Shown here: piece after piece, positions 902 to 18,593 of the stretch
Layout: every line of letters begins with the position of its first letter
Position numbering within the stretch: position 1 is the stretch's first letter
Origin: a virus
Direction: 5' to 3' (one strand)
IMG/VR virus record: IMGVR_UViG_3300035698_010304
Span: 1-30,514 of that record
DNA length: 30,514 nt
Program-made: the position numbers and the translations under genes
The notes under the pieces: generated by a model
Seen by the model: only the letters and a program-made list of their open reading frames with translations
What the model was told of the DNA's origin: nothing
Database searches by the model: none

Positions 902-1102
902 ATGACCCCCGAAGAATTGAAAACCTGGCGCGCCGATCACAGGCTCTCGCACGATCGCGCCGCCGTGGAACTCGGCAAATCGAAACGCATGATGATCTAT
1001 TACGAGGACGGAACCTATCCGATCCCGCGATATATCGAGCTCTCATGCGCCGCGATCGAGCGCGGGATCCGGAAATTCACCCGCAAGAAGGAAAGGAAAT
1101 AG
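902..1102 (+). CDS. Small XRE-type helix-turn-helix protein (cro/excisionase-like position)
   Basis: 66 aa. The pattern 'TPEELKTWRADHRLSHDRAAVELGKSKRMMIYYEDGTYPIPRYIELSCAAIE' is a compact XRE/Cro HTH: helix 2 about residues 16-23, recognition helix about 27-34, then the usual YE-G--PIPRYI segment. The protein is little longer than the domain and ends in a basic tail (TRKKERK). AGGAGA lies 8 bases before the ATG, and the stop is 2 bases before the integrase start, so the two are translationally coupled. A Cro-like regulator or recombination directionality factor fits the position. The sequence alone cannot separate these. Confidence 0.8.
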   Translation: MTPEELKTWRADHRLSHDRAAVELGKSKRMMIYYEDGTYPIPRYIELSCAAIERGIRKFTRKKERK

Positions 1103-1104
1103 GT

Positions 1105-3041: not shown

Positions 3042-3519
3042 GATATTCCTCCGGTTCTGACAGGTAGAATTCAAACTTCTTAACGAAACCCTCCGGCGTC
3101 CCCCTGCCGGCCGACGTGTTGTAATGCTTTTTCCAGTACCGGCCATATCCCTCTATGTCACCGATCTCCGGGAGCGGCTCCCGTCGCCGCGCATAGTGAA
3201 TCCGGCACATCATCGCCGCATATTGCAGGTCCCACACCAGGCGCCCCGGATCGGAGGGTGTGCCGCCGAGCTTCTTCGATATCTGCGGCCGGTACCGCAA
3301 CCAGGACTCCCAAATATCATCATGCGTCGCTGGCTCCATCTGGAAAATCCCGAGCGCCGGCCCGCTTGGATACTGTTTGAGAAACCGCAAGAGAGATTCC
3401 GCAACGGCCGTGCCGAGGACAAGGTCCTCCGCCGCCCGCGAGAGCATCCCTAGCCGTGCCAGCGCCGGCCGGATCACCAGCTCGCGCACCTGGCCCGGAT
3501 CCAACCCCGGCGAGCTCAT
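3031..3519 (-). CDS. Lysozyme/transglycosylase-like endolysin
   Basis: 162 aa. The ATG at 3519 overlaps the upstream stop as ATGA. A helix ending 'LGTAVAESL' carries the candidate catalytic Glu41, followed by 'GPALGIFQMEPATHDDIW' (about residues 53-70). That is the E...GxFQ arrangement typical of lysozyme-fold phage enzymes cutting peptidoglycan. The C-terminal half (YGRYWKKHYNTSAGRGTPEG) is like that of related endolysins. There is no signal peptide, so release would depend on the holin encoded just downstream. A virion-associated muramidase is a less likely alternative, given its place in the lysis cluster. Confidence 0.75.
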   Translation of the reverse strand: MSSPGLDPGQVRELVIRPALARLGMLSRAAEDLVLGTAVAESLLRFLKQYPSGPALGIFQMEPATHDDIWESWLRYRPQISKKLGGTPSDPGRLVWDLQYAAMMCRIHYARRREPLPEIGDIEGYGRYWKKHYNTSAGRGTPEGFVKKFEFYLSEPEEYHGL

Positions 3520-3783: not shown

Positions 3784-4581
3784 TTAGATGGTTGTGGGAT
3801 CGATTCCCATGAGCTCGAGCGCCGCACGTTGAGGTGTTCCCCGCCAACGATACGTCAGCGGATCCGCTTGGTCGCGCCAGGCGCCATAACAACCATGCTC
3901 CGCAAAATATTGATCGATCTCTACCGGCGTTCGATCGCTCACGTTCTCGAGCACGTCCTCATAGAGACATTTTGCGCAAAGAAACGCCGAGCTAATCGGG
4001 TGCCTCGGAGAATGCCCGCCAAGGAGATCGCTCAGATCTGCCGGCATCGCCGCGATCTGCTCAAACCGTCCGCTCATCGTCGCCGCGATCTCATCGAAAT
4101 CATAATCGACACCCGTCGCGATCGGCGTCTCCCATGCCGGCACTCCGATATAATATATATCGATCCCAGGCGCCTCGAGATCCGCGCGATACGTCGGCAG
4201 AATATCCGCGCTTGAGTTTTCCAGGGAGAAACCGAGCACCATGCCATCCGGCGCAACGTCCGCGATCATTTCCAGATAGGCGGCATATCGTGGCTCACAC
4301 AATCCGTAGTCCATTGTATTCGTGAAGCCCGGCCGCAGCGGCACCAGTTTCTCCACATAGGTATCCGGCCAGACCCCCGTCTGGTAATCGAAATCCCGGA
4401 CGTTTGCCTTTAACCAGGCGACGATCGCGCCCGCCGCCGCCTCCTCGGCATCGGCCTCGGCCGAACTCAAATAGCCCTCGCGCATAAACCGAGCGTGGAT
4501 CTCATGGCCGGTAAATTCCAGCCACCGCCAGAGGGCAAATGTGCTATTCACGCCACCCGAAAAAGGAATTAGAATTTTCAT
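3784..4581 (-). CDS. PP-loop ATP pyrophosphatase, QueC/PAPS-reductase-like
   Basis: 265 aa from ATG 4581, one base after the adhesin stop (TAATATG). A longer open frame to 4857 only overlaps the Gly-rich adhesin. Residues 1-18 form a beta strand plus PP-loop, 'MKILIPFSGGVNSTFALW'; the canonical SGGxDS has Asn12 for Asp. Further features are Cys95, a C-x2-C pair (Cys202, Cys205) and Cys231, which could hold zinc as in QueC-type enzymes. Such enzymes adenylate a carboxylate or carbonyl using ATP, for example in 7-deazaguanine synthesis, or act on sulfur donors. No partner gene (QueD, QueE, FolE, DpdA) is in the window. Nucleotide modification is possible but inferred. The superfamily is confident, the subfamily is not. 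Confidence 0.8.
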   Translation of the reverse strand: MKILIPFSGGVNSTFALWRWLEFTGHEIHARFMREGYLSSAEADAEEAAAGAIVAWLKANVRDFDYQTGVWPDTYVEKLVPLRPGFTNTMDYGLCEPRYAAYLEMIADVAPDGMVLGFSLENSSADILPTYRADLEAPGIDIYYIGVPAWETPIATGVDYDFDEIAATMSGRFEQIAAMPADLSDLLGGHSPRHPISSAFLCAKCLYEDVLENVSDRTPVEIDQYFAEHGCYGAWRDQADPLTYRWRGTPQRAALELMGIDPTTI

Positions 4582-4582
4582 A

Positions 4583-5224
4583 TTAGCCCACCGTCCCGTT
4601 GAATGTTCCGGATGTCCCGACGACGTTCCCGTTTTTCCGTACCGCATAACCCGCCGCACCGCCAGGGCCGGCACTGGTGGTCTGACAGGAGCCGCCGGGG
4701 CTGGTCCCGTTTGTGCCGGCAACACCGGCTGCGCCCTGGCTACCATTGCTTCCGTTGATATTAGGTGCGCCGCAATACGCACCGCCCTTGTCGCTGTACT
4801 CTGATTGGCTAACGCCGTGACCGCCGCCGCCGCCACCACCGCCGCCGAAGCTATCACCGCCCGCAGTTACATTTACCTCGCAACCACTATCGACCTCGAC
4901 ATAAAGCCCATCGCCGGCAGCACCGCCGGCGCCGCCGGCCGTGGTATTCGTCACGCCGAAAAACCCCTGCAGATCTCCAGCGATCGCATTGATCATCAGC
5001 GATGAATTGGCATTGATCGCCCCGGTTCGCATGGCATGGTTTGCCGCGCTCGATCCCGAGATATCCGCCCCGGTTAAAATATTCACAACGATAGAGCCGG
5101 GCTGCGCGTTGTTGAAACCGATCGCGACCGCCTCGGTCAGAATATTGTAATCCGATTCCGAGCCGCTGATATTCAGCACGGTTTGATTTTGTTTTCCGGA
5201 CATGCCGCCCAAGGGGATTAACAC
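4583..5224 (-). CDS. Glycine-rich tail-tip adhesin
   Basis: 213 aa from GTG 5224, which overlaps the fibre stop as TAGTG; ATG 5203 (206 aa, after GGGCGG) is an alternative start. The N-terminal 90 residues look like a beta-structured attachment domain. Then come clustered glycine runs (TTAGGAGGAAGDG; a nine-Gly run at about residues 130-138; GSNGSQGAAG; SAGPGGAAG) ending in 'GYAVRKNGN'. Glycine-rich loops separated by short conserved strands are the layout of receptor-binding tips such as T-even gp38. It directly follows the tail-fibre gene, so it probably forms or caps the distal fibre and sets host range. The homology is by architecture only. Confidence 0.75.
   Translation of the reverse strand: MLIPLGGMSGKQNQTVLNISGSESDYNILTEAVAIGFNNAQPGSIVVNILTGADISGSSAANHAMRTGAINANSSLMINAIAGDLQGFFGVTNTTAGGAGGAAGDGLYVEVDSGCEVNVTAGGDSFGGGGGGGGGHGVSQSEYSDKGGAYCGAPNINGSNGSQGAAGVAGTNGTSPGGSCQTTSAGPGGAAGYAVRKNGNVVGTSGTFNGTVG
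4820..4847. repeat. GCC/ACC trinucleotide run coding poly-Gly
   Basis: A run of nine near-identical trinucleotides (plus strand: four CCG-type units, two CCA-type, then CCG-type again) encodes the longest glycine run of the adhesin. Slippage here would change loop length by whole residues without a frameshift. Confidence 0.7.
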
Positions 5225-6189
5225 TACTGCAGCGCCTTAACTGTCAGGCTCGAGAAGCCATTGAGCTTGAGGATCTGCAGGAAAAAATCGTCGCCGCTTG
5301 TCGTGGTCAATGAGTCACCATCCACGATCGTAAACCCGCTAGTGGTGAGCGCGCCGGCGGATCCGTCATTTGTATACTGCAGGAGGATCGCACAATTCAA
5401 CGTCGGCGGCGCCAGGGTATGAGCTCCGCCATTAACACCGTACTGGAAATTACCCAGGGCCGGATCCGGCGTAAATGTCCCGGTTGTCTCGGTCCCGAAA
5501 TCGTAACCGTCCGCCGAATAGCCCACCTCGAGGGAATCCGTCGTGTCCGCCCGGAGTATATCAGCATCGATCGCCTCGACATCGGTCCCAGGCTCGAGAT
5601 CCAGGAGCGCCCGCACCGCGCCCGCCGTTGCGTTCACCCAATCGGCGCCGTCGTAATACAGGAAATCCCCGGTTGTCAGTGTCACCAGGGCGACATCGAG
5701 CGCGCTTGCCAGTTCCGCCAGGACGGCCGTCTCGAGCGCCGTATTACCGGCGTTCCAACGGATCACCCCGAGCGCCGACGGCTCCGGGAAAATGATATCC
5801 GAAAGCGCGCTTGTAACCGCCAGCTTGATCGTCCGCTCGAGGACCTCCTGCTGCTGCTGGATCACGATCACATTCCGATCGAGCCCGTTCTCATGGGCGC
5901 GCGACGGGAAATTTCCGCCCTCCGGATATTCTGTTGGCTGCTTGGCGACCACGCCCCGCACCATAACGATCGCGGCGCCATCGGCCGGCGCAGTTACGAA
6001 CGTGACATATCCGCCATCTTGATCGCCGGCGCCGGTCACTGTGTAATGCGTCGTGAGCGTCTGCAGCACGCCGGCGACATAGACCAGGAGCTCGGCGTCC
6101 GCGAAGATCTTACTGTCGAACGTGTAGGGCGTTTTCGTGGATCCGTCGCCGGTGAACGTCCAGCGCGAGGTTGAAAGTGCAACCGTCAT
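5224..6189 (-). CDS. Tail fibre protein, T7 gp17 N-terminal type
   Basis: 321 aa. The ATG at 6189 shares a base with the upstream stop (TAATG). Residues 1-150 match the T7 gp17-like attachment domain: 'W.FTGDGSTKTPYTFDSKIFADAELLVYVAGVLQT', then the 'YTV..AGDQDGGYVTFVTAPADGAAIVMVRG' strands and 'QPTEYPEGGNFPSRAHENGLDRNVIVIQQQQEVLERTIKL'. The QQ-rich helix probably starts the trimeric shaft. The remainder is a beta-rich shaft or tip with no recognised enzyme. It is shorter than T7 gp17 (553 aa), consistent with the distal tip being supplied by the glycine-rich protein encoded next. Confidence 0.9.
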   Translation of the reverse strand: MTVALSTSRWTFTGDGSTKTPYTFDSKIFADAELLVYVAGVLQTLTTHYTVTGAGDQDGGYVTFVTAPADGAAIVMVRGVVAKQPTEYPEGGNFPSRAHENGLDRNVIVIQQQQEVLERTIKLAVTSALSDIIFPEPSALGVIRWNAGNTALETAVLAELASALDVALVTLTTGDFLYYDGADWVNATAGAVRALLDLEPGTDVEAIDADILRADTTDSLEVGYSADGYDFGTETTGTFTPDPALGNFQYGVNGGAHTLAPPTLNCAILLQYTNDGSAGALTTSGFTIVDGDSLTTTSGDDFFLQILKLNGFSSLTVKALQ

Positions 6190-8744
6190 TATCTAATCCC
6201 TTCGAGTAATCGATCGCCGCCACCACGCGGAACCGCGGCCGACGGCCGAACCATAAATTTTTGTTTGTTCTGCTTTTCGACCGTGCGCTCAAACCGCTTG
6301 AGAAAGCCGGGCGATAACGCCTCCTGGATCTGATACAGAAACAGATAATCCAGGGCGATCCGCGAGTAGAACAGATTGACGAACGGCGCATTTGACAGGA
6401 TCGCGCGGAGCGCCGGCGCCGCGAGATCGTCGCCGCTCTTTACCCGGTTCCAGAGATCCGCGACCGTATCCACCTGGGAGAATGTCGGGCCGGCTATGGA
6501 CGCGAGGAGCGTCCGCCCGAACCTGGAATATTCACCCACGATGAAATCGCCATAGATGCCGGCGCCGCCGCCCTGGGTAAACGCGGCCGCCCACACTTTC
6601 GGATCCGTCGGATCCCGCGGCGATCGACCTTTCGCGAGATCCTTTGCCGTCAATGCCAGGTAGCCGAACACAGTGCCGGCAACCATCATATGCACCAGGC
6701 CGGCGACTTTCCCGAAACCGCCCTGGCCGCCGTAGATCTCTCGGCCCCATGCGCGAGAGATCACCGCGACGGGGAAAGATTTAAACTGCATGAGCATCCG
6801 GATCCCTTCACCCTCCGGCGTACCTGGTCGAGTGCCGAGCCTGGTGATAGCCCGCTCCCGCGCGCCCGGCTGCAGCACCGCATACTCGGAACGATCGGTA
6901 AAATACGCGTGAAGATCCAGAGCGAGATCCCGGCGCGCCTGGTCAACCCTGGCCGCCACGATCTCGGGCCGCGTGTCGGCTTTGATCTCGCCGCGCGATA
7001 CCAGGTAAGCCGCCATCTGATCATCGGGAATTTTCTGCGCCAGGTCCGGCGTGATGTAGCGCCGGCCGTTCGCCTGGTGATGATCCAGGCCGCGGAGCAT
7101 TTCCCACTTGCCGGCATCGATGCCGAACATATCCAGGAGCCGGCGCGAGGCATCGGGCAGATCCGCCATTGGCCGATCGGCCAGCTGCGCCAGGCTGCGC
7201 GACATCAACATTTCCATGCCGGCACGTTGCGAATCCGTCCAGTAATTAAGGCCGGACCAGCGAAAGAATGTGTTTTGAACCTTGGCGATTTTGCCAGGCG
7301 TCGTGTCGGCGCCGGTGAAACGATCGGCGAGGGATCCCGTCATGCCCTCGGTACCGGCCCGCAATAGATCCATGATCTCGCGTGTTTCGCTGCCCCTGGC
7401 GCCGCGGCCGCGCGCGATCGAGGCGAAACCGTCGGCATATCCCTCGAGAAGATTGCCTCCCTGGTAACGCACCTCCGCCGCCTTGAGCGGGATATCGCCG
7501 AGCGCGGAAAGAACAACCCCGCCGAGCTTGCTCATCGACTGCCAGGCGCGCCAGCCGGCGCCGATCCTGGCCGCCTGGCGATTGATCGGCATCATGGCCG
7601 TACCGTCGAGCTCATCCATCCGGTTGTGCAGCGCCTTCTCGCGGTTCCGGATCGCGAGCGAACGATCCGTGTCGCCGCGATGCCGCTCTGTCAGTGATCG
7701 GATATCGGCCTCGAGCTCGGCACGCGGGCTTGTCCCGAATTCCCGCATCAACGCGGTGTGCCTGGCGCCGTGATCGAGAGCGCGGAGCGTCAACTCCATT
7801 AAATTACCGGTACCGAAATCGTCGTTGTAATTCATCCAGGCATCGGAATCGCGGAAATGCAGTTTACGCCCCTGGCTCAAACGCTTCGCCAGGTTGCCAG
7901 GTCCGACAAATGCCGGATCCTTGATGCCGGTCATACCGTCCTGGGTCATGTGAACACCCGTTACCAGGCCGTCATAAACCGCATCGAGAAACGCCCCCGG
8001 ATCCTCGATGTCGGCAAACGTGCGCTCGGCATCGAGCTCGGCCAGGATCTTCGCTTTCCAGGCGTCACGCCCGACGCGCCGGATCCGATCGGGATCGTGC
8101 GATGTCCTGGCGATATACCCGTCATATTCGCCGATCCAGGCGCCCGCGCGGTTCAGACCATCAACCGATTGTTTCTGATATTTATGGATTATCCCGGCGA
8201 CCTGGCGCGCCCTGGCGTTACCCGTCACACCGGGCTCGGCATCGGGCTTGTTCGAATTGAGCTCGGCGAGCTCCTGGGCGATCGCGCGATCATCATCGCC
8301 GCGGCGCGCGTATTCGAATAGATCCAGCTTGTCCAGGTCGACCGCGAGCCCCTGCTGCAGTTCAGCATTCAGGCCGCGGTATTGAGCATCGACCGAAAGC
8401 CGGGATCCGCTGAATGGCGTGTTGACCCCGACCAGCTTCGCCTCGAGGCCGATGATCTGGCCCGGCGTTTTCCCCACGTCGGGCGCCTCCTCGTAAAAGC
8501 GCCGGCGAGAAACCCGCTTTTTCAGGTTCATAATCTTATTGCGGCGCTCGATCGCGGCCGCACGTTTGAGATCCGCCGAGATCTCTTTTGCCGCCGACTG
8601 CAGCTGCTCGGATTCCGATAGCCTGGGCGAATCCGATCGGCGCTTGAAACCAACAATCCTGGTCAGGATCGCCTCGAGCTCCGCATCGGAAAAATCAACG
8701 CCGGCGGCTTTGCGGATCTCGGTCAGGCATTTCTGATAGGCCAT
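6189..8744 (-). CDS. Large internal virion (ejection) protein, membrane-inserting type
   Basis: 851 aa. The start lies directly after the stop of the 1087-aa gene. The N-terminal third is highly charged and helical. The middle holds 'GWRAWQSMSKLGGVVLSALGDIPLKAAEV' and 'TFFRWSGLNYWTDSQRAGMEMLMSRSL', seen in large phage polyvalent/ejection proteins. The C-terminal quarter has 'MLMQFKSFPVAVISRAWGREIYG' followed by a hydrophobic segment near residues 680-700 ('GLVHMMVAGTVFGYLALTA') and glycine-rich hydrophobic stretches. In T7-like phages the last and largest core protein (gp16) is injected and spans the envelope to guide DNA; this gene has the same place and character. I see no clear lytic transglycosylase motif. 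No exact family name is claimed. Confidence 0.8.
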   Translation of the reverse strand: MAYQKCLTEIRKAAGVDFSDAELEAILTRIVGFKRRSDSPRLSESEQLQSAAKEISADLKRAAAIERRNKIMNLKKRVSRRRFYEEAPDVGKTPGQIIGLEAKLVGVNTPFSGSRLSVDAQYRGLNAELQQGLAVDLDKLDLFEYARRGDDDRAIAQELAELNSNKPDAEPGVTGNARARQVAGIIHKYQKQSVDGLNRAGAWIGEYDGYIARTSHDPDRIRRVGRDAWKAKILAELDAERTFADIEDPGAFLDAVYDGLVTGVHMTQDGMTGIKDPAFVGPGNLAKRLSQGRKLHFRDSDAWMNYNDDFGTGNLMELTLRALDHGARHTALMREFGTSPRAELEADIRSLTERHRGDTDRSLAIRNREKALHNRMDELDGTAMMPINRQAARIGAGWRAWQSMSKLGGVVLSALGDIPLKAAEVRYQGGNLLEGYADGFASIARGRGARGSETREIMDLLRAGTEGMTGSLADRFTGADTTPGKIAKVQNTFFRWSGLNYWTDSQRAGMEMLMSRSLAQLADRPMADLPDASRRLLDMFGIDAGKWEMLRGLDHHQANGRRYITPDLAQKIPDDQMAAYLVSRGEIKADTRPEIVAARVDQARRDLALDLHAYFTDRSEYAVLQPGARERAITRLGTRPGTPEGEGIRMLMQFKSFPVAVISRAWGREIYGGQGGFGKVAGLVHMMVAGTVFGYLALTAKDLAKGRSPRDPTDPKVWAAAFTQGGGAGIYGDFIVGEYSRFGRTLLASIAGPTFSQVDTVADLWNRVKSGDDLAAPALRAILSNAPFVNLFYSRIALDYLFLYQIQEALSPGFLKRFERTVEKQNKQKFMVRPSAAVPRGGGDRLLEGIR

Positions 8745-11700
8745 TTAACTTGTCCCCATGCAGCGGGCGCCGGCTTCGTATGCCGCCCCCAGGTTGTCAG
8801 CTTCGCGCGCCAGGGCTTCCGCCTCGAGGAGCTCGGGCTCGGTACCGTCGATCAGGCCGTCCGCTTTCATCTGCGCCAGGTCCGCCTCGGCATCCGCGAG
8901 CGCCAGATCCAGATCCAGGAGATCGCCCTGGCCGCGGCCGGCAACGTCGAATAATCCATCCTCGAGCGTGTCGTTTCGGCCGGCCAGGGGAGCATCGGCG
9001 GCCGCCTGGTTACGCTCGGCATCCGTCACCGGCTCCACAAACGAGGACTGTCCGTCACCGTCGGCATTGAAATCGGAATCGGCTCTGTCTATATCTAGGT
9101 CGGAGGTACGAGTTATGGAATCTACTGCAGGATTATCCGACGACGGCCGGGCATTCGTGGTTTCACGGACCGGCGTATTTGCCCGAGACGCGGCCGGCGT
9201 CTGGTCTAAGCCGGCATCATTCAACGCCGAAGCAACCGCGGCGGAGTTTTCCACCGTGTCGCCGGCCGAGGCTACCGCCCTGGCGAGCGAGGCGGAAACC
9301 GCGCTCTCATCGGACTGAACGCGCGCCAGGTACGCATCGAATGCGGCCTGGTAGCTCGCGGCGCTCGCTTCTCTGTCTGTAATAAATTCTAGGCGCTGCG
9401 CCTCGTCCAAGGCGACCAGATCCTCATTGCGCCACTTTTCAAAAAGTACATGGTTTGGCTTTTTAGCCGCCTCGATCTCGCGGATCGGTAGATAGAACTC
9501 GATCAGCTGGCCGTTAGGCATCTGCAGATCAAACGCGACAATCCGGAAACCCCATTCTCTCGGCGCGAGGAATTTTGCGACATCCGCCTTGACCACGCGC
9601 GCGCCGAGATTGGCGCGGAGATAATCCAGGATCGCCGGCAATTCGCCGATGTCCTCGAGGATGGTTTTAAACCGGAAACTATCGCGGATATGTTCGACCC
9701 CGTGCCAGGGCTTCGCCGCCAGGACCGACGGCCGGCCCGCTTTCTCGAGGATCTTCGCCGGGTCTTTGATCGATGATTTCGATGTCGTGCCGAACCTGGC
9801 ATCGAGATCCACCAGGAACGCATCAACAATCGGCCTGTTATCGGCCGTCATGGCCTCGAGGGCGGCGACCTTTTGCTCCGGCGCCAGGCTCGCGTCGATC
9901 GGGTTAACGATCTCCTCGATCGGCGTTCCGGGATCTAGCTTTCCAGTTCCCGCGCTATCGCCTGGCGGCTCTGCTGCAGCGCCCGCGATCGATCCGTTTT
10001 CATTCTGAGCATCCGCTTGGCGTCCTGCTCTGCTATCCAGTTCCCCTCCGCCATCGCTCGCCGCAGCTGCTCTTGCGTCGGCGGCGGCGGCGGCGGCGTT
10101 TTCGATGATGGCGGCGAGGTTTCCGTTACCGGATTCGGCTGTGACGGAATCGGCGACGGCTCGGGCGGCGCCGCGGATGTCTCCACCGCCGGCGACGGCT
10201 CGGGCGCCGGCGTTGAGACTGTCGGAGACGGCGCCGGCGCGGTTGGCGAGGATCTGGAGGATCTCGAGGGCTTGACTACTGGCATCCGATTTATCCTTGT
10301 TTGCGACCGTATCGAGGCGGTTTTTCCCGGCATCCTGGATCCGCTCGATATTGTCGGAAAGCGTCTTAAAGACCTGTTTATCACTTTTGAGCAATTTGAT
10401 CGCGCGCGCCAGCACCTTCGCGGGCGGGCCGAACAGGCTATCGGCGACCGTCTCCTCGCCAAACAACCCCGTTTGAACCTCGACCTTGACGCCCGCCGCG
10501 ATACCCTGGCGCACGATCGCCTCGGCCTCGATCACGCTCGCCGGATCCTCACTCGCCAGGAGCCGCAGCAAAGCGCCCTGCAATTGCTCATCTTTCGGCG
10601 CCAGGCGGCCGACCAGGGCGGCCATGTTCGCCGGCACAACCTCGTTAACGACCAGGAGAAACGCCTCATCCGAGAGCGCGACAAGATCCTTTGCCTGGCC
10701 GATCAGTTCCGATCGGCGCGGCATCGAGGGATCATTGATCATCGCGGGATCGACGCGGAGCACCTTTGCGGCATCGATCGCCGTTCCGGTTCCCTGGGCG
10801 ATGTTCACCATTGCGGCCGTCATGCGAACGCTCTCCGGCGAGCGCCCATCGATTGCCTTGTACAAATAGCCGTAGAGCTTGATGTCCTGGCTCGGATCCG
10901 CCTCCTGGATCCGCCTCGCCAGGCCGAGCCGTTGATGCCCGTCCGCGATGAAACGCTGCCCGTCGGCGCGCTCATATACCAGGATCGTCCCGGATTTGGC
11001 GGCATCCCACTGCGTCACGCCGGCCAGGCGATCCGTTACGCCGGCGGAATCGCCGCCGGCCTTGAATTGGAATGTCGCCGCATCGGCCTCGATCTTGGCC
11101 GGATTGAATTCGTATATGATGCCGTCCAGGTTATCCGGCCGCGTCATGTCCTCATCGCCCGAACGATCCTCGATCGGCGGGCTATTCTCCGTCGGCTGCG
11201 CGCGCGCTGTTGCGCGTACCTCGGCGCCGCCGGCACGGTTAACCTCGCCATCCTCGACCAGCTCCGCAACACCGGCCGCGATCTCGTCCCGGCGCACATC
11301 CACATCGCGCCCCGATCGCATCGTGCGGATCTTATCCAGGGCCGCCCCGCCGCCGGCATGAAGCCCGCCGCCGAGGATTGTGCCGAATGTCAGGTTGAGG
11401 AGTGAATCAACCGCCCCATAGTCCGCCTGTTCCTGCTGCGTGAGGCCGTAAACAATCGGCTCCACTAGGGCGGCGCCCGCCAGACCCTCAACGGCGCCCA
11501 CGCGCGCCCGTAGGCCCGCCCTGGCGAGGTTGCCAGAACGGCGCGCCAGGGCGATTCCGTACCTGGCAGGGCCGATTACCGGCACAAAGGCCGAGGCGAT
11601 ATTGATTGGATCGATCGCCGATACCACGAAACCCGCCGCCAGGTGCGCTGCAGCTGTGCCGAGCCCCTGGCCGCCACGGGCTAAAACCTCCTCGCGCCGG

Positions 11701-12008
11701 ATCTCGTCCCGCTTCAAATGAAAGAGCTCGCGCCCCGTTGTCGCATCCGTCGGGCCGTCGAATTTCAAATGTCCAGGGATCCCAAACTGATTATTGGCAT
11801 CCTCCTCGGACATAAGATTATAACCGTCATCCGCCTCCTCGCGCTCGCTCCGCGATCGCCATCGCTCGATAAGCGCCATCGGGTTTTTGTCGAGCCCGTC
11901 GCCGGCGACCGCGCCGATCGTCTCCCCGAGCGATGCAGGGATATTAGCCAGCCCCTCGGCTTTGGCGCGCCGGTTTGCAACAATCGGTTTTGTGATCAGG
12001 CCGACCAT
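8745..12008 (-). CDS. Polyvalent ejection protein with ParB/DdrB-like and RelA/SpoT-like regions
   Basis: 1087 aa; ATG 12008 shares a base with the previous stop (TAATG). Residues 1-240 are Ala/Gly-rich helices with a membrane-like segment (about 115-145). Residues about 297-540 look like a DdrB-like ParB domain: 'IIYEFNPAKIEADAATFQFK', 'ILVYERADGQRFIADGHQRLGLA', then helices. Residues about 600-690 are an Ala/Gly linker. Residues about 724-865 resemble the RelA/SpoT synthetase fold: 'SSIKDPAKILEKAGRP', 'IRDSFRFKTILED', 'EWGFRIVAFDL', 'LIEFYLPI'. The C-terminus is acidic and low-complexity. Gene order (after gp14/gp15-like genes) places it in the virion core, so these domains would be delivered into the cell with the DNA. 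The ParB-like call is firmer than the RelA-like one. Confidence 0.8.
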   Translation of the reverse strand: MVGLITKPIVANRRAKAEGLANIPASLGETIGAVAGDGLDKNPMALIERWRSRSEREEADDGYNLMSEEDANNQFGIPGHLKFDGPTDATTGRELFHLKRDEIRREEVLARGGQGLGTAAAHLAAGFVVSAIDPINIASAFVPVIGPARYGIALARRSGNLARAGLRARVGAVEGLAGAALVEPIVYGLTQQEQADYGAVDSLLNLTFGTILGGGLHAGGGAALDKIRTMRSGRDVDVRRDEIAAGVAELVEDGEVNRAGGAEVRATARAQPTENSPPIEDRSGDEDMTRPDNLDGIIYEFNPAKIEADAATFQFKAGGDSAGVTDRLAGVTQWDAAKSGTILVYERADGQRFIADGHQRLGLARRIQEADPSQDIKLYGYLYKAIDGRSPESVRMTAAMVNIAQGTGTAIDAAKVLRVDPAMINDPSMPRRSELIGQAKDLVALSDEAFLLVVNEVVPANMAALVGRLAPKDEQLQGALLRLLASEDPASVIEAEAIVRQGIAAGVKVEVQTGLFGEETVADSLFGPPAKVLARAIKLLKSDKQVFKTLSDNIERIQDAGKNRLDTVANKDKSDASSQALEILQILANRAGAVSDSLNAGARAVAGGGDIRGAARAVADSVTAESGNGNLAAIIENAAAAAADARAAAASDGGGELDSRAGRQADAQNENGSIAGAAAEPPGDSAGTGKLDPGTPIEEIVNPIDASLAPEQKVAALEAMTADNRPIVDAFLVDLDARFGTTSKSSIKDPAKILEKAGRPSVLAAKPWHGVEHIRDSFRFKTILEDIGELPAILDYLRANLGARVVKADVAKFLAPREWGFRIVAFDLQMPNGQLIEFYLPIREIEAAKKPNHVLFEKWRNEDLVALDEAQRLEFITDREASAASYQAAFDAYLARVQSDESAVSASLARAVASAGDTVENSAAVASALNDAGLDQTPAASRANTPVRETTNARPSSDNPAVDSITRTSDLDIDRADSDFNADGDGQSSFVEPVTDAERNQAAADAPLAGRNDTLEDGLFDVAGRGQGDLLDLDLALADAEADLAQMKADGLIDGTEPELLEAEALAREADNLGAAYEAGARCMGTS

Positions 12009-14416
12009 TAATTGCGCCCCGTCAAACCGTCGAGGCCGCGGCCCTGGCTATTGTTCCGGATCGGATCCAGGCGATTTTCCCGGCCGAGTTTGTCCGAGCG
12101 GCTTTTTGCCGCCTGGACCGCCGTCGGGATTGATTCGTGAGCCGGCAACGCCTCGCCAGTTTCCGGATCCACGCCGTCCGCGGCGGAGATCATTTCGATC
12201 GCGCGCTCCTGGTCGACCTGGATCCCATTAAACATTGTCGGGATATTTGTCGGCCGACCGTTATTGATCCGCTGATCCGTAACCGTCGCCGTCCGCTCGC
12301 TCGATTCTGTGCCGTCCGGATTCTTCACCAGGGACCGCCCATATCGAGACGTGCCGACCAGGACGGGGATCTCATCGAACTTGAATTCGACGTGATCGCC
12401 GTTTGCGAGCTCGACCGGGTTTTTCGCGGCATCGATCAGGAGCCAGCCATCATCGGCCGGGTTTGAAATCCATTTATGGCTTCCCCCCAGGGAATCGACA
12501 TAGGCCGATCGCGCCTCGTCCGGCGTCAATACATCGTCGGGGACATCGGCCAGCTGGTGCGCCTGGATATTTTTCACGACCAGGGCGGCATATTCTTCCG
12601 GATCCCGATCGAGATCCGCCGGCGACCTGGCGCCGTAATGCGATGAATTGTGAAACTTGTATTTGCCGATCATTACCTGGACGGCGCGCTGCGCGGCCGC
12701 GGCAGGTTCTTCGCCCTTCGATGTCGCATAGAAATAGGCCAGATTTTGCGCGGCCGTTTCCCATTCGAGCCCGATCGTCGCGCCGCCTGGCGCCTCTCGC
12801 AATGACACTTTCAAATCGAGCATCCCGGTACGGACCTCGCTATCGATCAGCGCCGCGTCCGTCGTTTTTTTACGGAGCTCCTCGCGGCCGGTTTTGATCG
12901 CTTCGGCCATATGCTGACGGCCGGCCGAGTGATCGATATTTGCGAGGATCTGCGTTGTCGGCGGGAGCCCCTCATCCACCATTTCACCATAAACTTTCGG
13001 CCAGTTATCGCCGTAGTGTTTTGTCATTTGCTCAATCGAATCCGCGACATCCTCGGCCGATGTGCGGCCCAACTGATCAACGCGCGCGACCGCTTCACGC
13101 TTTGAGATCGTCCGGCGCTTCGCCTCCGGAACGCCGAGCGCATCCTGGATGTTTTCCATGTATTGAATGAAACCGGCCGGATCCGCATTTTCGCCGTTCA
13201 GATCTCCCAGGCCGTCAAATCCGCCGGCGCCGGCGTTCAGATCGTTATAGATCGCGCGCGCTTCCGGCGACGTGGAAATGATGTAATCAATCGGATCTGC
13301 AGCGAGCGCCTTGTTATGTGCCTCGATTGCCCGCGCGATCGATAGCCGCTGTTTCGCGTCGCGCGCCACATGCTCATTTCCAGGATCATTCGCCACCAGG
13401 AGCTCGGCATTCTCGGCCGGCGTGTTCCCTGCAACGGTTTGCATATCGACATAGAACTGTTTTTGATCGTCGATCTCCTCCTGGATCACCGTCGCGCGCT
13501 TGACGCCGAGATCTTTCACCAGGCGCTCGAACGTCACGCCGGTTCCCTTGCCGTCGAGCCCGATCTTTGCAATGTGATCATTCAGATCAATTTTTAGCTT
13601 CGCCTCTACGCCGGCCTGGGCCTCGCGCGCCTGGCGCTTCGCTACCACATCACGACGCTTGATCTCTGATTTTGCCGATTTGATCAGCGCGCCCTTTTGC
13701 GCCGGCTCCAAGATTTTATTGAAAGTTCCGCCGTCCAGGAGCTCGAGCGCGCGCGCAGGGTTCCGCTCGGCCAAGCCAGACAGACCAGAGGCCGCGTGAG
13801 ACGCCGACGCCGACGCCTTGAAAGTCCGCTTTTTATCCTCGCTGATATTCGTCCCGTCGATCGCCGCGTGTGATTCTTTGGTGACGGCATCGAGGAGAGT
13901 AAAATCGGACATGACCGCGTTCGAATTTGCGCGGATCGTGCCGTTAATGTCCGCCACCCGTTTCGCTGCGCCGCGGGCGCCCTGTATCTCAAAAGCCTTC
14001 GCCGAGAGGGATCCGCGCAGCTCCAGAAGTTTACCCCGCAAATGTGGCCGTGTCAGAGCGTCAGCATCCGCCAGGCGCGATTCCATTTCCTCATCGAATT
14101 CGGCAATCACCGATTTACTGAAACCGGCGGCGCCCTCCGGCGCGTCCGTCGCCATTTCCTCGAGGCGCGTTGTCCAGGCGTTTCGCTCATCGGCAACAAC
14201 CCGCGTTGCATCGAGCGATGCCGTCCGCTCATCATCGGCCGCGAGCTCGCGCTCCGCCTGGGCCGATTCTGTTTTCTGATCCGCTTGCATTTGCCTGGCG
14301 AATTCATCCGCCATAGCGGCGATTCCCTCGAAGCCGCTGCCCTGGGTACCGCGCATCATGGAGGCGCCACCGCCGGCGGAGATCGATTGCGACCGCTTGC
14401 CCTGGGGAATTCTCAT
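12008..14416 (-). CDS. Internal virion protein, gp15-like position
   Basis: 802 aa, starting in an ATGA overlap with the gp14-like gene. It is strongly helical and rich in Ala, Glu, Asp and Arg, with long predicted coiled coils (for example residues about 30-130 and 240-280). The C-terminal 110 residues carry 'RTATVTDQRINNGRPTNIPTMFNGIQVDQERAIEMI', a block seen at the end of other phage internal proteins. Its length and position between gp14-like and gp16-like genes match T7 gp15 (747 aa), which forms the periplasmic part of the ejection tunnel. Direct sequence similarity to gp15 is not obvious, so the assignment is by context. Confidence 0.75.
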   Translation of the reverse strand: MRIPQGKRSQSISAGGGASMMRGTQGSGFEGIAAMADEFARQMQADQKTESAQAERELAADDERTASLDATRVVADERNAWTTRLEEMATDAPEGAAGFSKSVIAEFDEEMESRLADADALTRPHLRGKLLELRGSLSAKAFEIQGARGAAKRVADINGTIRANSNAVMSDFTLLDAVTKESHAAIDGTNISEDKKRTFKASASASHAASGLSGLAERNPARALELLDGGTFNKILEPAQKGALIKSAKSEIKRRDVVAKRQAREAQAGVEAKLKIDLNDHIAKIGLDGKGTGVTFERLVKDLGVKRATVIQEEIDDQKQFYVDMQTVAGNTPAENAELLVANDPGNEHVARDAKQRLSIARAIEAHNKALAADPIDYIISTSPEARAIYNDLNAGAGGFDGLGDLNGENADPAGFIQYMENIQDALGVPEAKRRTISKREAVARVDQLGRTSAEDVADSIEQMTKHYGDNWPKVYGEMVDEGLPPTTQILANIDHSAGRQHMAEAIKTGREELRKKTTDAALIDSEVRTGMLDLKVSLREAPGGATIGLEWETAAQNLAYFYATSKGEEPAAAAQRAVQVMIGKYKFHNSSHYGARSPADLDRDPEEYAALVVKNIQAHQLADVPDDVLTPDEARSAYVDSLGGSHKWISNPADDGWLLIDAAKNPVELANGDHVEFKFDEIPVLVGTSRYGRSLVKNPDGTESSERTATVTDQRINNGRPTNIPTMFNGIQVDQERAIEMISAADGVDPETGEALPAHESIPTAVQAAKSRSDKLGRENRLDPIRNNSQGRGLDGLTGRN

Positions 14417-14913: not shown

Positions 14914-15365
14914 CGCCGGACCCTTTTATATTGGATGAAATCCGAGCCATCCGGACCCCACGCCTCGCATGGCGCCTCGATGTCAAAGCCGAGGAGCTCC
15001 ATCCACTTGTGACCGGGCCAGAACGACGCGGCGACATGGGACTCGAGCCGGATATATCCGCCCGGCGCTTGCGCGCGATCGAGCGTTGAGCGAACAAACC
15101 GCGTGATCCCGAGCCAATCGGATGTCGGCACATCGACCCCGACCAGAGCCCAACACAGGCCGCGGCCTTGCCAGAATTTCGAAATCGCACCGCAGCCTAA
15201 AACCTTGTTTTCCGATCGAGAGATTGCCGACCAGGCAAAGCTCGGATCTGCGAAACGGCTCACGTCGGCGCCGCCGATCAATTCCATGTCGAGCGCCTGG
15301 GCCGCCTGGATATCGATCCGCCGGCAATGCGCCGGGATCCAGGGAATGAACTCTAAATCAGACAT
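14910..15365 (-). CDS. DUF2833 / gp13-like acetyltransferase-fold protein
   Basis: 151 aa. The ATG at 15365 lies inside the gp12-like gene (8-base overlap). Key pattern: 'IPWIPAHCRRIDIQAAQ' at the N-terminus, 'SRSENKVLGCGAISKFWQGRGLCWALVG' in the middle, and 'RIESHV'-like 'IRLESHVAASFWPGHKWMELLGFDIEAP' near the end. This is the compact GNAT-like fold of the phage gp13/DUF2833 family. In T7 gp13 is needed for virion morphogenesis and lies directly after gp12, exactly as here. Whether it acetylates anything is unknown. Confidence 0.8.
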   Translation of the reverse strand: MSDLEFIPWIPAHCRRIDIQAAQALDMELIGGADVSRFADPSFAWSAISRSENKVLGCGAISKFWQGRGLCWALVGVDVPTSDWLGITRFVRSTLDRAQAPGGYIRLESHVAASFWPGHKWMELLGFDIEAPCEAWGPDGSDFIQYKRVRR

Positions 15366-18021
15366 CGGAAACCGTGATGTTAGGCACCACGTTAACGACC
15401 GTCGCCGGGCCGGCGCCGTCGCCGATCAGGATAAAATCGCCGTCAGAACTCCAATCGCCATCGATCTCGATCCGCTTGTCACCAGAAAAGAGCGGCGGCG
15501 CGCTGTCCATTGCGTCCGCAGTTGTCCGGAAAGAGATCGGCTCGGCGAGCTCCTCGGTACGACCGACCTTGACGCCAGTTGTACGATAGAACCGGATATC
15601 GGCATCGATGATCCTGGACCGCTTGCCCTGGGCCGTACCGCGGCGGGATCCGCCCTCGGGCCGTTGCGGCTTGAGCTTCCACACATAGGGCAATCCTATC
15701 GCCCCGTAGCTGATCGGGTTTTCGAGCGTCACGATGCCGCCCGTTACGACGAACCGGCCCTGGTTCGCGCCGTCGCCCCAAACCTCAACCGTCTGGCCTT
15801 CCAGGTGATCATAGCCCGCGATCGCGACCGTCATTTCGCGCGCGATGCCCCCCGAGACATATGTCCCGAATCCGGATCCATCGATATCGACGCCCTCGCG
15901 ATTGGTCAGCGAGAAGCCGGCGCCGTCCGCGGCCGCGACTGTGTAAACCTCTTTATTGAGATCCGTGATGCCCTGGAATTCTGTCAGCCGGACACGATCG
16001 CCGTCGCTGTATGGATGCCCGCTCGCGGAGATTACAACCGGGTTCGCATTTGTGGCGCCTGTAATTGCCACCCGGGTATCGAATGCCAGGCCGGCATCGA
16101 CAAAAAACGCGGCATCCGCATCGGTTTCGTGGACAAACGGATCCGTGAGGATCTCGATATGCCGCACCGTCGCGCCGTCAACCGTCCGCTTGACCGAGAG
16201 CCAGAGCTCATCATATCCGTTGACTCCGGGGATCGACGCGACACTTTCGACAACGGCCAGGCCGCCCTCGAAATTCCCGCCGAGCGGGTGCCTGTGCCAG
16301 CCGAGCACGGACTCATCTGCCTGGTACGTCAGCGCCACCAGGGCGCCATCCGCGCGACATGCCCAAATCAGCGAATAAGGCTCCTGCTGATAGGCCATCT
16401 GCACAATCCCGGAGTTGAGAATGTGATCGGCGCGCACGGTCAGATCCCGCGCCTGGTAGCCGTCGCTCGAGAAATCATATTTAAGCTCGCGCAACTTGCG
16501 GCCCTGGCGCTGCACAAAAAGCCAGGCGCCGGCCACTGCGACCGGCGAAATATCGGCGCATCCATAACGGGTTTCGAAACGTGTCTGGACGTTGCTCGGC
16601 GTGATCACCGCATTGATGCTATCGGCCGACGCTTTCATTTCTCCGCCAGGTGTGCCGAACAGAAGAACGCGCGCGGAGACGCACCACAGGAGCGTTGTAT
16701 TTGAATCGGCCGCGACATTGATCGAGATCGCATCATCATCGGCCGAGCCTGGCGAGAACACATTGAAATCAGCGGTACGCGAAGCATCCCACCGACCAGG
16801 CGCCGCCAGGGCCGCGCCGGCGAAAACCGCCCGTTGTTCGTAAAAAGAACCATCGCGCGGCCATCCCGTAGTGTCGGAATAAAGCCCCAGGCGCCAGGCG
16901 CTTACGGCGGTACTGGCACCAAAGGCCGTGCGGATATCAATCAATACATTCGTCGTGTCGGTAACGACGGTAATAATGCCATAACCCCAGGTATCGGAAT
17001 GCTTCAACCGCACCAGGCGCCCGACATCCGTCGCCAGGAAGCCGCGGCCGTCATTGATGAAATTCGTACTACTCGCCGCCAGAGTGATGCCAAGCCCGGT
17101 TGTCGCGCCGGGGTTAAGCGTCGTGCCGGATTCGGTGTTCTCACTCAGATACGGGCCATCCTGAAAATCGAATTTCTCGATCGACCAGGACGCATGTCCG
17201 CGCCGGCTGATCTGGCGCGGATGATAGCTCGGATGATAGACATAGAGCCGATCGATCGATTGCTGCCAGGCGATCGCCAGGGCGCCGGCTTCATCAAACG
17301 GCGATGTGATCTCAAACGGTTCATTGTCCAGGAGCGCCACGTTATCGATGCCGACGGATTTCGCGGCCGTGTTAATAAACTGGACGAAAAACGGGCTAGA
17401 CGGCGGTGTAAAAGCGATCGCGTGATGCCCGACCCCGAGCTTTAGATCATCGATAATCTGCGCGCCGGTTGTCGCCGTACCGATCCGGAGCTCGATCGTA
17501 TCGCTCGCAACCCCGAGCACGTCAAACCGCAGCGTGTGCTCGACGCCCGTCGACGCTGTTGCAACCGACTGCTCGGCCCACCCGGCGCCGCTTGAATGCC
17601 CCGTAACATCCATCCAGCCGCCGGCGTTAAACGCGCGATCAGCCGTGCCGCCGATCGATTCATCCGTCCAGCTTGAAATATCAGACGCAAAATCGCCGTT
17701 CGCGATCACCGCATTTGTATCCAGGACAACGACCTGCGCGCGATCCTTGCAGACCCGCATATAACCGTTGCCTATTTCCAGGACGTAGGATTGCGAGGCA
17801 TCGAATTCGAAATCGACCAGGTTGACCCGCTCCGCGCTGTTCTTGTGCGCGACAACGTGCTTTGTCCCTGGTCGCCGCACCGCCGGCCCCTGGCTGATCC
17901 CGTGGATATTCTCCTGGATCCGCGAAGATTGATAAATGAATTCGAGATCATACCGCCCCTCGACCAGCGGCGAGACTTCGCCGGCATTAAATGCCTGGAC
18001 CGGCGGCGAGGCGTTCGTCAT
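15358..18021 (-). CDS. Tail tubular protein B / tail nozzle, gp12-like
   Basis: 887 aa; the ATG overlaps the gp11-like stop (ATGA). The N-terminus carries the signature 'FNAGEVSPLVEGRYDLEFIY', then 'NIHGISQGPAVRRPGTKHV', typical of T7 gp12-type nozzle proteins. Long beta-rich regions follow, including 'LTEFQGITDLNKEVYTV', seen in related phage proteins. T7 gp12 is 794 aa, so the size fits. It forms the distal tail tube through which DNA leaves the capsid. It is followed by the gp13-like gene, preserving T7 gene order. Confidence 0.92.
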   Translation of the reverse strand: MTNASPPVQAFNAGEVSPLVEGRYDLEFIYQSSRIQENIHGISQGPAVRRPGTKHVVAHKNSAERVNLVDFEFDASQSYVLEIGNGYMRVCKDRAQVVVLDTNAVIANGDFASDISSWTDESIGGTADRAFNAGGWMDVTGHSSGAGWAEQSVATASTGVEHTLRFDVLGVASDTIELRIGTATTGAQIIDDLKLGVGHHAIAFTPPSSPFFVQFINTAAKSVGIDNVALLDNEPFEITSPFDEAGALAIAWQQSIDRLYVYHPSYHPRQISRRGHASWSIEKFDFQDGPYLSENTESGTTLNPGATTGLGITLAASSTNFINDGRGFLATDVGRLVRLKHSDTWGYGIITVVTDTTNVLIDIRTAFGASTAVSAWRLGLYSDTTGWPRDGSFYEQRAVFAGAALAAPGRWDASRTADFNVFSPGSADDDAISINVAADSNTTLLWCVSARVLLFGTPGGEMKASADSINAVITPSNVQTRFETRYGCADISPVAVAGAWLFVQRQGRKLRELKYDFSSDGYQARDLTVRADHILNSGIVQMAYQQEPYSLIWACRADGALVALTYQADESVLGWHRHPLGGNFEGGLAVVESVASIPGVNGYDELWLSVKRTVDGATVRHIEILTDPFVHETDADAAFFVDAGLAFDTRVAITGATNANPVVISASGHPYSDGDRVRLTEFQGITDLNKEVYTVAAADGAGFSLTNREGVDIDGSGFGTYVSGGIAREMTVAIAGYDHLEGQTVEVWGDGANQGRFVVTGGIVTLENPISYGAIGLPYVWKLKPQRPEGGSRRGTAQGKRSRIIDADIRFYRTTGVKVGRTEELAEPISFRTTADAMDSAPPLFSGDKRIEIDGDWSSDGDFILIGDGAGPATVVNVVPNITVSDV

Positions 18022-18593
18022 TTGCTCAGACCGCGGCGGCGCGCCTTAACCAGCGTTCCGTTTTTCGCTTTAGCCGGCGAGCCCTGTTGAGCGTCGACCG
18101 AGCGCATTTCGCGGCGCAGCACCTTGAGCTCATCGTCTAATAATTTTTTGCGTTTGAGATCCTCGGTCACGCGCATACAGATCGCGACCGCGAGCTCTTT
18201 CGTCATTAACGCATAGAGAGCCGCGTCCATTTCATCGGGCTCGATCCGCTTCCGGAACGTGACCCGCAACGGCGCCGGCTCATCGGTATAGATAAACCGG
18301 CCGAAAATCTTGTGCGTGACATCATCCTCGACCGCATCGACATGCAGACAATATGGATTCGTCGGCCAGGCATAGGCATATAGCCAACCCCATGTCGGCG
18401 CGGCCCCGGAAACCGGGAGCGATTCCTGATGCAAAGCCGAATCCCAGGGATGGGATTTGAGCACCCGGTCGCGCACGCCCGGATACCTGGTGCGGCAAGC
18501 CTGGGCGATCGTGCCGGACTGTTCCGGATCCGTCACCTCAAAGCGCCCGCATTCAGCGAGAGCGTCGTTATATAGATCGGTGATTGAGCTCAT
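18018..18593 (-). CDS. Tail tubular protein A, gp11-like adaptor
   Basis: 191 aa, close to T7 gp11 (196 aa). ATG 18593 follows AAAGGTG by 5 bases. The pattern 'ITDLYNDALAECG', 'QACRTRYPGVRDRVLKSHPWDSAL', 'GWLYAYAWPTNPYCLHVDAV' and a helical C-terminus ('LVKARRRGLSK') are typical of gp11-type tail adaptors, which bind the portal and connect it to the nozzle. It overlaps the gp12-like gene by 4 bases. Confidence 0.92.
   Translation of the reverse strand: MSSITDLYNDALAECGRFEVTDPEQSGTIAQACRTRYPGVRDRVLKSHPWDSALHQESLPVSGAAPTWGWLYAYAWPTNPYCLHVDAVEDDVTHKIFGRFIYTDEPAPLRVTFRKRIEPDEMDAALYALMTKELAVAICMRVTEDLKRKKLLDDELKVLRREMRSVDAQQGSPAKAKNGTLVKARRRGLSK

What the first reader, a model, noticed from the sequence alone, without database searches (positions are those of the whole stretch)
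9414..9839. RelA/SpoT-like nucleotidyltransferase region inside an ejected virion protein
Residues about 724-865 of the 1087-aa protein have the order seen in (p)ppGpp synthetase folds: a basic/Ser segment before 'KILEK', 'IRDSFRF', a 'WGFRIV' block like GYRS, and 'IEFYLPI' in the place of EIQIRT. Delivered with the genome, it could alter nucleotide signalling or modify tRNA at the start of infection, as toxic small alarmone synthetases do. I am not aware of this being described for a T7-like ejection protein.
Basis: inference. Interest (0 to 1): 0.65.

Follow-up and report, generated by a model that had tools for sequence, protein, structure and literature searches.

The report
Swappable enzyme in ejected phage protein
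A protein that a short-tailed phage most likely packs in its particle and injects with its DNA carries a divergent enzyme domain related to bacterial "alarm signal" (alarmone) makers, and close relatives show that this domain is one of several effector domains swapped in and out of the same injected protein.

Summary
Residues ~697-895 of the 1087-aa protein fold like small alarmone synthetases (SAS): AlphaFold2 pLDDT 84, and the top 50 PDB Foldseek hits are all RSH/SAS (best E 3.6e-7). Catalytic Asp776 and Glu837 are invariant in 36 relatives. The family is divergent: no Pfam hit in the window protein, and the guanosine motif and adenine-clamp arginines are absent. RelA/SpoT domains in phage polyvalent proteins were already described (Iyer 2017), so the concept is not new.

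New here is the genetic logic. The carrier's N-terminus is homologous to an internal virion protein of cultivated podoviruses; behind it sit a ParB-like part, the enzyme and a tail. Among 80 contigs with the same ParB part, the slot after ParB holds this domain (8), a second RelA/SpoT-like class (25), a Zeta-toxin-type kinase (35), other/no cargo (9), or is truncated (3). Flanking DNA can be 95-99% identical while the cargo is unrelated or absent, and no cargo-linked immunity gene is seen in the compared flanks. Best reading: an ejected, polymorphic-toxin-like carrier whose cargo here is a probable pyrophosphokinase of unknown acceptor. Delivery and activity are inferred.

The parts
8745..12008 (-). 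carrier ORF, 1087 aa, internal virion (ejection) protein-type polyvalent protein
   Evidence: same gene position as the internal virion proteins of cultivated podoviruses
11139..12008 (-). N-terminal chassis, aa 1-290: virion-protein part
   Evidence: phrog_3003 E 3.5e-34; phmmer E 2.5e-38 / 8.2e-37 / 5e-33 to the carrier-position proteins of Vibrio phage 1.182.O, Pseudomonas phage Tr60_Ab31 and Pelagibacter phage HTVC035P
10488..11123 (-). ParB/Noc-like (DdrB-like ParB) part, aa ~296-507
   Evidence: AF2 model pLDDT 72, Foldseek first 16 hits all ParB/Noc/Spo0J, best 8.9e-5; PF18763 ddrB-ParB best 4.2e-28 in 3 of 18 relatives. The window protein itself gives no PF18763 hit.
10089..10430 (-). 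helical part, aa ~527-640, conserved with ParB in the carriers
9324..9920 (-). RelA/SpoT-type (SAS-fold) cargo domain, aa 697-895 (class 'Rel1')
9765..9767 (-). K748, triphosphate-binding Lys position (FaRel2 K66); K756 and R759 follow
   Evidence: 36/36 conserved; residue roles from PMC11782079
9681..9683 (-). D776, catalytic/Mg Asp position in IRDSFRF
   Evidence: 36/36 conserved; aligned to the invariant Asp of RSH/SAS
9540..9557 (-). G-loop EWGFRI, aa 818-823, Trp/Phe in place of the base-stacking Tyr
   Evidence: W 33, F 3 of 36
9498..9500 (-). E837, Glu of the EIQIRT-equivalent motif
   Evidence: 36/36 conserved
8748..9038 (-). acidic C-terminal tail, aa ~991-1087, shared with carriers of other cargo
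   Evidence: phmmer of the window tail: best hit is the tail of Zeta-type carrier L120, E 1.2e-11; residues 901-1087 have net charge -26
6189..8744 (-). phrog_684 virion structural/internal virion protein gene, starts directly after the carrier stop
   Evidence: E 2.1e-182; homologues annotated 'putative internal virion protein' in Pelagibacter phages
12008..14416 (-). gp15-position protein, 802 aa; its end overlaps the carrier start by one base
   Evidence: phmmer 1.2e-16 to the same-position protein of Vibrio phage 1.182.O
14413..14913 (-). internal virion protein (phrog_418, gp14 position)
   Evidence: E 8.5e-22
15358..18021 (-). tail tubular B-type protein (phrog_376)
   Evidence: E 1.2e-164
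18018..18593 (-). tail tubular A-type protein (phrog_394)
   Evidence: E 3.2e-29

Best explanation
The protein is an internal virion (ejection) protein of a T7-like podovirus that works as a carrier with an exchangeable effector slot. An N-terminal virion part, a ParB-like part and an acidic tail form the chassis. Between the ParB/helical part and the tail sits a cassette of roughly 0.9 kb, here a divergent RelA/SpoT-type (SAS-fold) domain. The carrier is packaged, enters the cell with the DNA, and the domain transfers pyrophosphate (most likely from ATP) to the 3' OH of a nucleotide or of an RNA end. That alters host nucleotide pools or translation at the start of infection. Shown by computation: fold, conserved catalytic core, position, homology to virion proteins, cassette exchange with other toxin-like enzymes. 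Inferred: presence in the virion, entry into the cytoplasm, enzymatic activity, host-directed role. Not determined: donor and acceptor.
For: Fold and core. Strong constraint: Rel1 core 56% mean identity to relatives, against 15-19% for the N-terminus and tail; dN/dS 0.006-0.09 in six of the seven pairs with a computable ratio (the seventh, L013/L016, gives 0.51 on almost no changes). Carrier is virion-type: N-terminus homologous to internal virion proteins of cultivated phages; gene order tailA-tailB-acyltransferase-like-IVP-gp15-carrier-phrog_684 as in those phages. Exchangeable cargo: of 80 carriers found with the ParB part, 35 Zeta-type, 25 second RelA/SpoT-like class, 8 Rel1, 9 other/none, 3 truncated; Zeta_toxin Pfam best 1.2e-22 in 12 of 27 representatives. 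DNA flanks across a swap: L121 (Zeta)/L122 (Rel1) 99.2% over 1.2 kb before and 99.1% over 106 bp after the cassette; L149 (Rel1)/L174 (empty) 95.3% over 5.3 kb and 84.3% over 2.9 kb; L146 (Zeta)/L153 (Rel2) 98.3% over 6.2 kb and 95.9% over 3.4 kb. The second class links Rel1 to known synthetases: hhalign prob 94.5 to Rel1 and 94.0 to RSH/SAS, and E 1e-21 to exported-synthetase-like proteins L098/L099.
Against: No virion proteomics or enzyme assay is known to me for any member. Positions that bind the donor adenine in FaRel2 differ: R64 position is S/N/D, R95 is K, Q147 is Y; the guanosine SxH motif is absent. The compared flanks show no cargo-linked immunity gene, although characterised Apk1/Apk2 have one (PMC12691689). 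The cultivated phages found with this gene position or chassis gave no Rel1, Rel2 or Zeta hit; for Ruegeria phage 45A6 only part of the giant ORF was scanned. All swap examples are metagenomic contigs. The 80 carriers are the best-scoring sample under a cap, so counts are not frequencies.
Confidence: 0.62

Rival explanations
1. The cargo is made in the producing lysogen or late-infected cell and acts there (competitor exclusion, abortive or toxin-antitoxin-like role); packaging is incidental.
For: The window phage has an integrase-like ORF and looks temperate; SAS-fold proteins act as defence toxins in prophages (CapRel, PMC9712102); Zeta kinases are best known from toxin-antitoxin systems (own knowledge).
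Against: The cargo is fused into a late virion-protein gene, and no antitoxin is seen directly beside it or tied to the cargo in the compared flanks.
Confidence: 0.15
2. The domain is a pyrophosphokinase-fold protein that has lost catalysis and serves as a nucleotide- or nucleic-acid-binding structural module in the ejectosome.
For: Altered adenine-binding positions (R64 position to S/N, R95 to K, Q147 to Y) and missing SxH.
Against: Metal Asp, Glu and K/K/R phosphate-binding positions are 36/36 conserved; the slot is shared with Zeta-type kinases and can be empty, so it is dispensable for structure.
Confidence: 0.12
3. Sub-hypothesis on product: the domain makes (p)ppGpp or (p)ppApp, like Tas1/Apk1, Apk2 or exported alarmone synthetases.
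For: Arg at D+3 as in the Apk2 syn2 motif RYT (PMC12226406) and in L098/L099 and Tas1; the profile finds L098/L099, which resemble the exported synthetases of Vibrio/Shewanella.
Against: Acceptor-site residues differ from both G- and A-type enzymes; Arg at D+3 occurs in L098-type proteins too, and VpEAS makes only (p)ppGpp, so it does not fix the product.
Confidence: 0.4
4. Sub-hypothesis on product: the domain pyrophosphorylates the 3' end of tRNA or another RNA, as CapRel and FaRel2 do.
For: Structural similarity to CapRel Z 10.6 and FaRel2 Z 7.4; lack of the guanosine motif.
Against: Fold similarity does not discriminate among SAS types; the N-terminal tRNA anchor of FaRel2 was not looked for here.
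Confidence: 0.25

Closest known systems
Phage polyvalent proteins with RelA/SpoT and DdrB-like ParB domains (Iyer et al. 2017, PMC5512222)
   Same: RelA/SpoT-type domain plus DdrB-like ParB in one large late phage protein predicted to enter with the DNA; ART and Zeta-type kinases also occur in the class
   Different: Iyer et al. name Spirochaetes, epsilon-Proteobacteria and MuF fusions for RelA/SpoT; this sequence family has no Pfam hit in the window protein, sits in the podovirus ejection block, and shows clean cassette replacement including an empty slot
MuF-Apk2 prophage toxins, (p)ppApp synthetases (PMC12226406)
   Same: virion-associated phage protein carrying a SAS-fold cargo; Arg plus aromatic at the syn2 positions
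   Different: no MuF domain hit here, no adjacent immunity or hydrolase gene, different syn3/syn4 residues, cargo lies inside the protein before a conserved tail
Exported alarmone synthetases (EAS), SaEAS 8vx3 and VpEAS (PMC12691689)
   Same: the Rel1 profile finds Sec-type proteins L098/L099 at E 2.3e-8 and 4.7e-7; Foldseek ranks 8vx3 second; no immunity gene beside them
   Different: delivered by phage, not Sec; Rel1 has W/F in the G-loop and Y in place of the Gln of E-x-Q. That L098/L099 are VpEAS orthologues was not tested.
RelQ/RelP small alarmone synthetases (5ded, 6fgk)
   Same: fold and catalytic Asp/Glu; best Foldseek and hmmsearch matches
   Different: about 18-20% identity in the Foldseek alignments to RelQ; guanosine SxH and adenine-clamp Arg absent
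T7-like internal virion (ejection) proteins, e.g. Pelagibacter phage HTVC035P gp48
   Same: same gene position and homologous N-terminus (E 5e-33)
   Different: 489 aa; no Rel1, Rel2, Zeta or ParB match
Polymorphic toxins (general)
   Same: constant delivery chassis, exchanged toxin-like domains
   Different: cargo is followed by a conserved tail; no linked immunity gene seen

Membership tests
RelA/SpoT synthetase (SYNTH, SAS-fold) superfamily | SAS/RSH fold | tested here: met
RelA/SpoT synthetase (SYNTH, SAS-fold) superfamily | catalytic Mg Asp and the Glu of the EIQIRT motif | tested here: met
   D776 and E837, 36/36; alignment
RelA/SpoT synthetase (SYNTH, SAS-fold) superfamily | basic triphosphate-binding residues after strand 1 | tested here: met
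   K748, K756, R759, 36/36
RelA/SpoT synthetase (SYNTH, SAS-fold) superfamily | aromatic residue in the G-loop | tested here: met
   W 33, F 3 of 36, in place of Tyr
RelA/SpoT synthetase (SYNTH, SAS-fold) superfamily | pyrophosphokinase activity | not testable with these tools
   needs purified protein
Pfam PF04607 RelA_SpoT as curated | score over the gathering cut-off | tested here: not met
   No hit in the window protein; 5 of 36 relatives match weakly, best E 0.012
Guanosine-specific (p)ppGpp synthetase | SxH guanosine motif after the G-loop | tested here: not met
   I/F/V/M and A/G/V/P/S at the two positions; motif meaning from PMC12226406
Canonical SAS donor site | Arg pair and Gln that hold the donor adenine (FaRel2 R64, R95, Q147) | tested here: not met
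   N/S/D, K, Y; roles from PMC11782079
MuF-Apk2 toxins | N-terminal MuF domain | tested here: not met
   No Pfam MuF hit in the carrier or relatives; N-terminus matches a different internal virion protein
MuF-Apk2 toxins | adjacent immunity/hydrolase genes | tested here: not met
   By longest-ORF starts the next gene overlaps the carrier in 66 of 67 scored carriers, one gap of 290 nt
Podovirus internal virion (ejection) proteins | gene position and sequence homology | tested here: met
Podovirus internal virion (ejection) proteins | presence in the virion and ejection | not testable with these tools
   needs virion mass spectrometry and ejection assays
Phage polyvalent proteins (Iyer 2017) | several conflict-type domains in one late phage protein | tested here: met
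   ParB-like part plus Rel1; giant Rel1 carriers have LPD38, ART-PolyVal, ddrB-ParB, LPD39, LPD22
Polymorphic toxin-like systems | different toxin-like domains on one constant chassis | tested here: met
Polymorphic toxin-like systems | linked immunity gene | tested here: not met
   Not in the compared flanks; one elsewhere in the genome, or one shared by all, is not excluded

The most novel reading that the evidence does not exclude
Podoviruses of this lineage use an ejection protein as a polymorphic, immunity-free injection carrier whose payload (two RelA/SpoT-like classes, Zeta-type kinase, ART, or none) is exchanged by homologous recombination in the conserved flanks, and Rel1 is a new synthetase family with a rebuilt donor/acceptor pocket and possibly a new product.
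Probability: 0.4. Interest if true: 0.8.

Novelty: new variant of a known kind. Interest (0 to 1): 0.62.

Why it matters
If the payload is delivered and active, these phages would be a natural, comparable set of particles with nearly the same body and different injected enzymes, including empty ones, so the effect of each payload on the host could be tested directly. It would extend RelA/SpoT-type and Zeta-type chemistry to the first minutes of podovirus infection, and raise the question how a producer lives with such cargo without an evident immunity gene. For annotation, it shows a large environmental set of SAS-fold domains that the current Pfam model largely misses.

Tried and rejected
L006 (Kocuria) in the first homologue search is a chance match to a glycosyltransferase and was dropped. 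Pfam hits DSBA and DUF4465 to the window protein are weak and not shared. The thioredoxin and VPS4 chains in the PDB profile search fall at E 0.3 or worse. Substrate prediction from Arg at D+3 was given up, because L098-type proteins have it and VpEAS is reported to make only (p)ppGpp. Direct profile comparison with five SAS sequences alone was weak (E 0.029); the broader RSH set and the second cargo class carried the link. No Rel1 homologue was found in INPHARED phages (nothing better than E 0.3 with the window domain; none at E 0.01 with the domain of L040) or in PLSDB plasmids with the L004 domain. PADLOC and NCBIfam gave nothing for the carrier. A search of the phages with the second cargo class failed on a frame error and was not repeated. 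Literature searches found no description of this in T7-like ejection proteins in the held open-access library; subscription papers and preprints were not searched.

Full report
Observation. ORF 8745-12008 (minus) encodes 1087 aa and the stated coordinates are residues 724-865. A profile of six homologues has the small alarmone synthetases RelP (E 4.5e-4) and RelQ as its first PDB sequence matches. Profile-profile comparison with RSH/SAS sequences from unrelated genomes scores 31.9, against 14.4 reversed and at most 19.3 in 20 column shuffles. The AF2 model of residues 700-889 (pLDDT 83.6) finds only RSH/SAS enzymes in the 50 PDB rows shown, best E 3.6e-7; VIA-align Z is 11.8 to RelQ, 10.6 to CapRel and 10.2 to Tas1, with terminal nucleotidyltransferases near 7. 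The fold assignment is therefore firm, although the RMSDs are large (about 4-7 A).

Active site. In 36 homologues D776, E837, K748, K756 and R759 are invariant, and the G-loop aromatic is Trp or Phe. Measured against FaRel2 (PMC11782079) the positions that hold the donor adenine differ: R64 is N/S/D, R95 is K, Q147 is Y. The SxH guanosine motif is absent. Arg at D+3 is shared with Apk2 (RYT, PMC12226406), Tas1 and L098/L099. I conclude that catalysis is likely retained and that donor or acceptor recognition has been rebuilt; the product is not predictable. Purifying selection is strong (dN/dS 0.006-0.09 in six of seven pairs with a computable ratio; the remaining pair has almost no changes).

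Link to known synthetases. The Rel1 profile finds two Sec-signal proteins, L098 and L099, at E 2.3e-8 and 4.7e-7 per genome. They look like the exported alarmone synthetases of Vibrio and Shewanella (PMC12691689), though orthology was not tested. A second cargo class described below bridges Rel1 to RSH/SAS (hhalign prob 94.5 to Rel1 and 94.0 to RSH/SAS; score to Rel1 54.4 against at most 22.7 for shuffled Rel1) and matches L098/L099 at E 1e-21.

Carrier. The gene order is tail tubular A, tail tubular B, an acyltransferase-like protein, phrog_418 internal virion protein, a gp15-position protein, the carrier, phrog_684 (the acyltransferase likeness). The same order occurs in the cultivated Vibrio phage 1.182.O, Pelagibacter phage HTVC035P and Pseudomonas phage Tr60_Ab31. 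Their proteins at the carrier position (566, 489 and 579 aa) are homologous to residues 1-290 of the window carrier (E 2.5e-38, 5e-33, 8e-37), with no ParB, Rel1, Rel2 or Zeta match. So the window protein is an internal virion protein extended by a ParB-like part (Foldseek hits Noc/ParB, best 8.9e-5), Rel1 and a tail. Position and homology make virion packaging likely; it is not shown.

Cassette exchange. By HMMs made here, their slot after ParB holds a Zeta-type kinase (35), the second RelA/SpoT-like class (25), Rel1 (8), other or none (9), or is truncated (3). Pfam confirms Zeta_toxin in 12 of 27 representatives (best 1.2e-22) and ART-PolyVal/DUF3990 in one. All 80 show at least one of the expected neighbours (tail B, IVP and gp15 upstream, phrog_684 downstream) in the expected order, many show all; missing ones are at contig ends or below the phmmer threshold. 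Where the downstream phrog_684 gene is seen, its longest-ORF start overlaps the carrier stop in 66 of 67 cases. A tail HMM made from Zeta carriers hits Rel1 and Rel2 tails at 1e-27 to 1e-9 (it did not reach the window tail), and a direct search with the window tail has a Zeta carrier, L120, as best relative, E 1.2e-11. Near-identical DNA surrounds unrelated cargo: L121/L122 (Zeta/Rel1) 99.2% before and 99.1% after; L146/L153 (Zeta/Rel2) 98.3% over 6.2 kb and 95.9% over 3.4 kb; L149/L174 (Rel1/empty) 95.3% over 5.3 kb and 84.3% over 2.9 kb; L120/L160 (Zeta/Rel1) 91.4% and 87.1%. L160 is the same contig as L001, the window's closest Rel1 relative. The window's own N-terminus does not match those of the 80, so the chassis itself is modular too.

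What this says and does not say. The exchange pattern is that of a delivery chassis with interchangeable effectors, and it argues that Rel1 is an effector and not a structural need. In the compared flanks no gene changes together with the cargo, so a cargo-specific immunity gene close by is not seen; one elsewhere, or one common to all, is not excluded. The counts come from a capped, redundant sample and are not frequencies. Misassembly is unlikely to explain the swaps, since each cargo type occurs in many contigs from different samples, but single contigs were not checked against reads.

Wider distribution of Rel1. It also occurs in giant proteins of about 1800-3400 aa, among which LPD38, ART-PolyVal and ddrB-ParB domains are found, fused to a DUF7178 protein (L002), and as a free-standing 267-aa protein beside relaxase and T4SS coupling genes in an Obscuribacterales MAG. 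It was not found in cultivated phages or PLSDB plasmids.

Known versus new. RelA/SpoT domains with DdrB-like ParB in phage polyvalent proteins, and Zeta-type kinases fused to MuF, were described in 2017 (PMC5512222); MuF-Apk2 toxins make (p)ppApp (PMC12226406). What I did not find described in the held literature is this divergent family in the podovirus ejection protein and its clean replacement by other effectors on one chassis. I file it as a new variant of a known kind.

Noticed in passing
window 3784-4857 (-): ORF containing MKILIPFSGGVNSTFALW, a PP-loop ATPase-like start with a Cys-containing C-terminal part, between tail-fibre and lysis genes; no Pfam or NCBIfam hit. Possibly QueC/ExsB-like, by eye only.
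   Followed up: partly
window 2568-3146 (-): GTA_holin_3TM, E 7.9e-18, a holin type named for gene transfer agents.
   Followed up: no
window 21260-21496 (-): 78-aa ORF with a duplicated LSVPTKAQKK stretch.
   Followed up: no
window 1045-2223 (+): Phage integrase-like ORF on the opposite strand (sub-cut-off Pfam scores), suggesting a temperate phage.
   Followed up: partly
L004 7968-8771 and L003 2417-3214: Free-standing Rel1-type proteins in an Obscuribacterales MAG; in L004 near a relaxase, a T4SS coupling protein and an RHS protein with Ntox44.
   Followed up: partly
L108 and like carriers, after the first ParB part: An apparent second ParB-like domain lies before the Rel2 cargo (by eye).
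   Followed up: no
L002 6402-8639: Rel1 at the C-terminus of a DUF7178 protein.
   Followed up: no
L184 5597-13312 (Prochlorococcus phage P-SCSP1c): A 2571-aa protein with a ParB match follows a 953-aa protein in the gp15 position of an Autographiviridae phage; its cargo, if any, matched none of the HMMs made here.
   Followed up: partly
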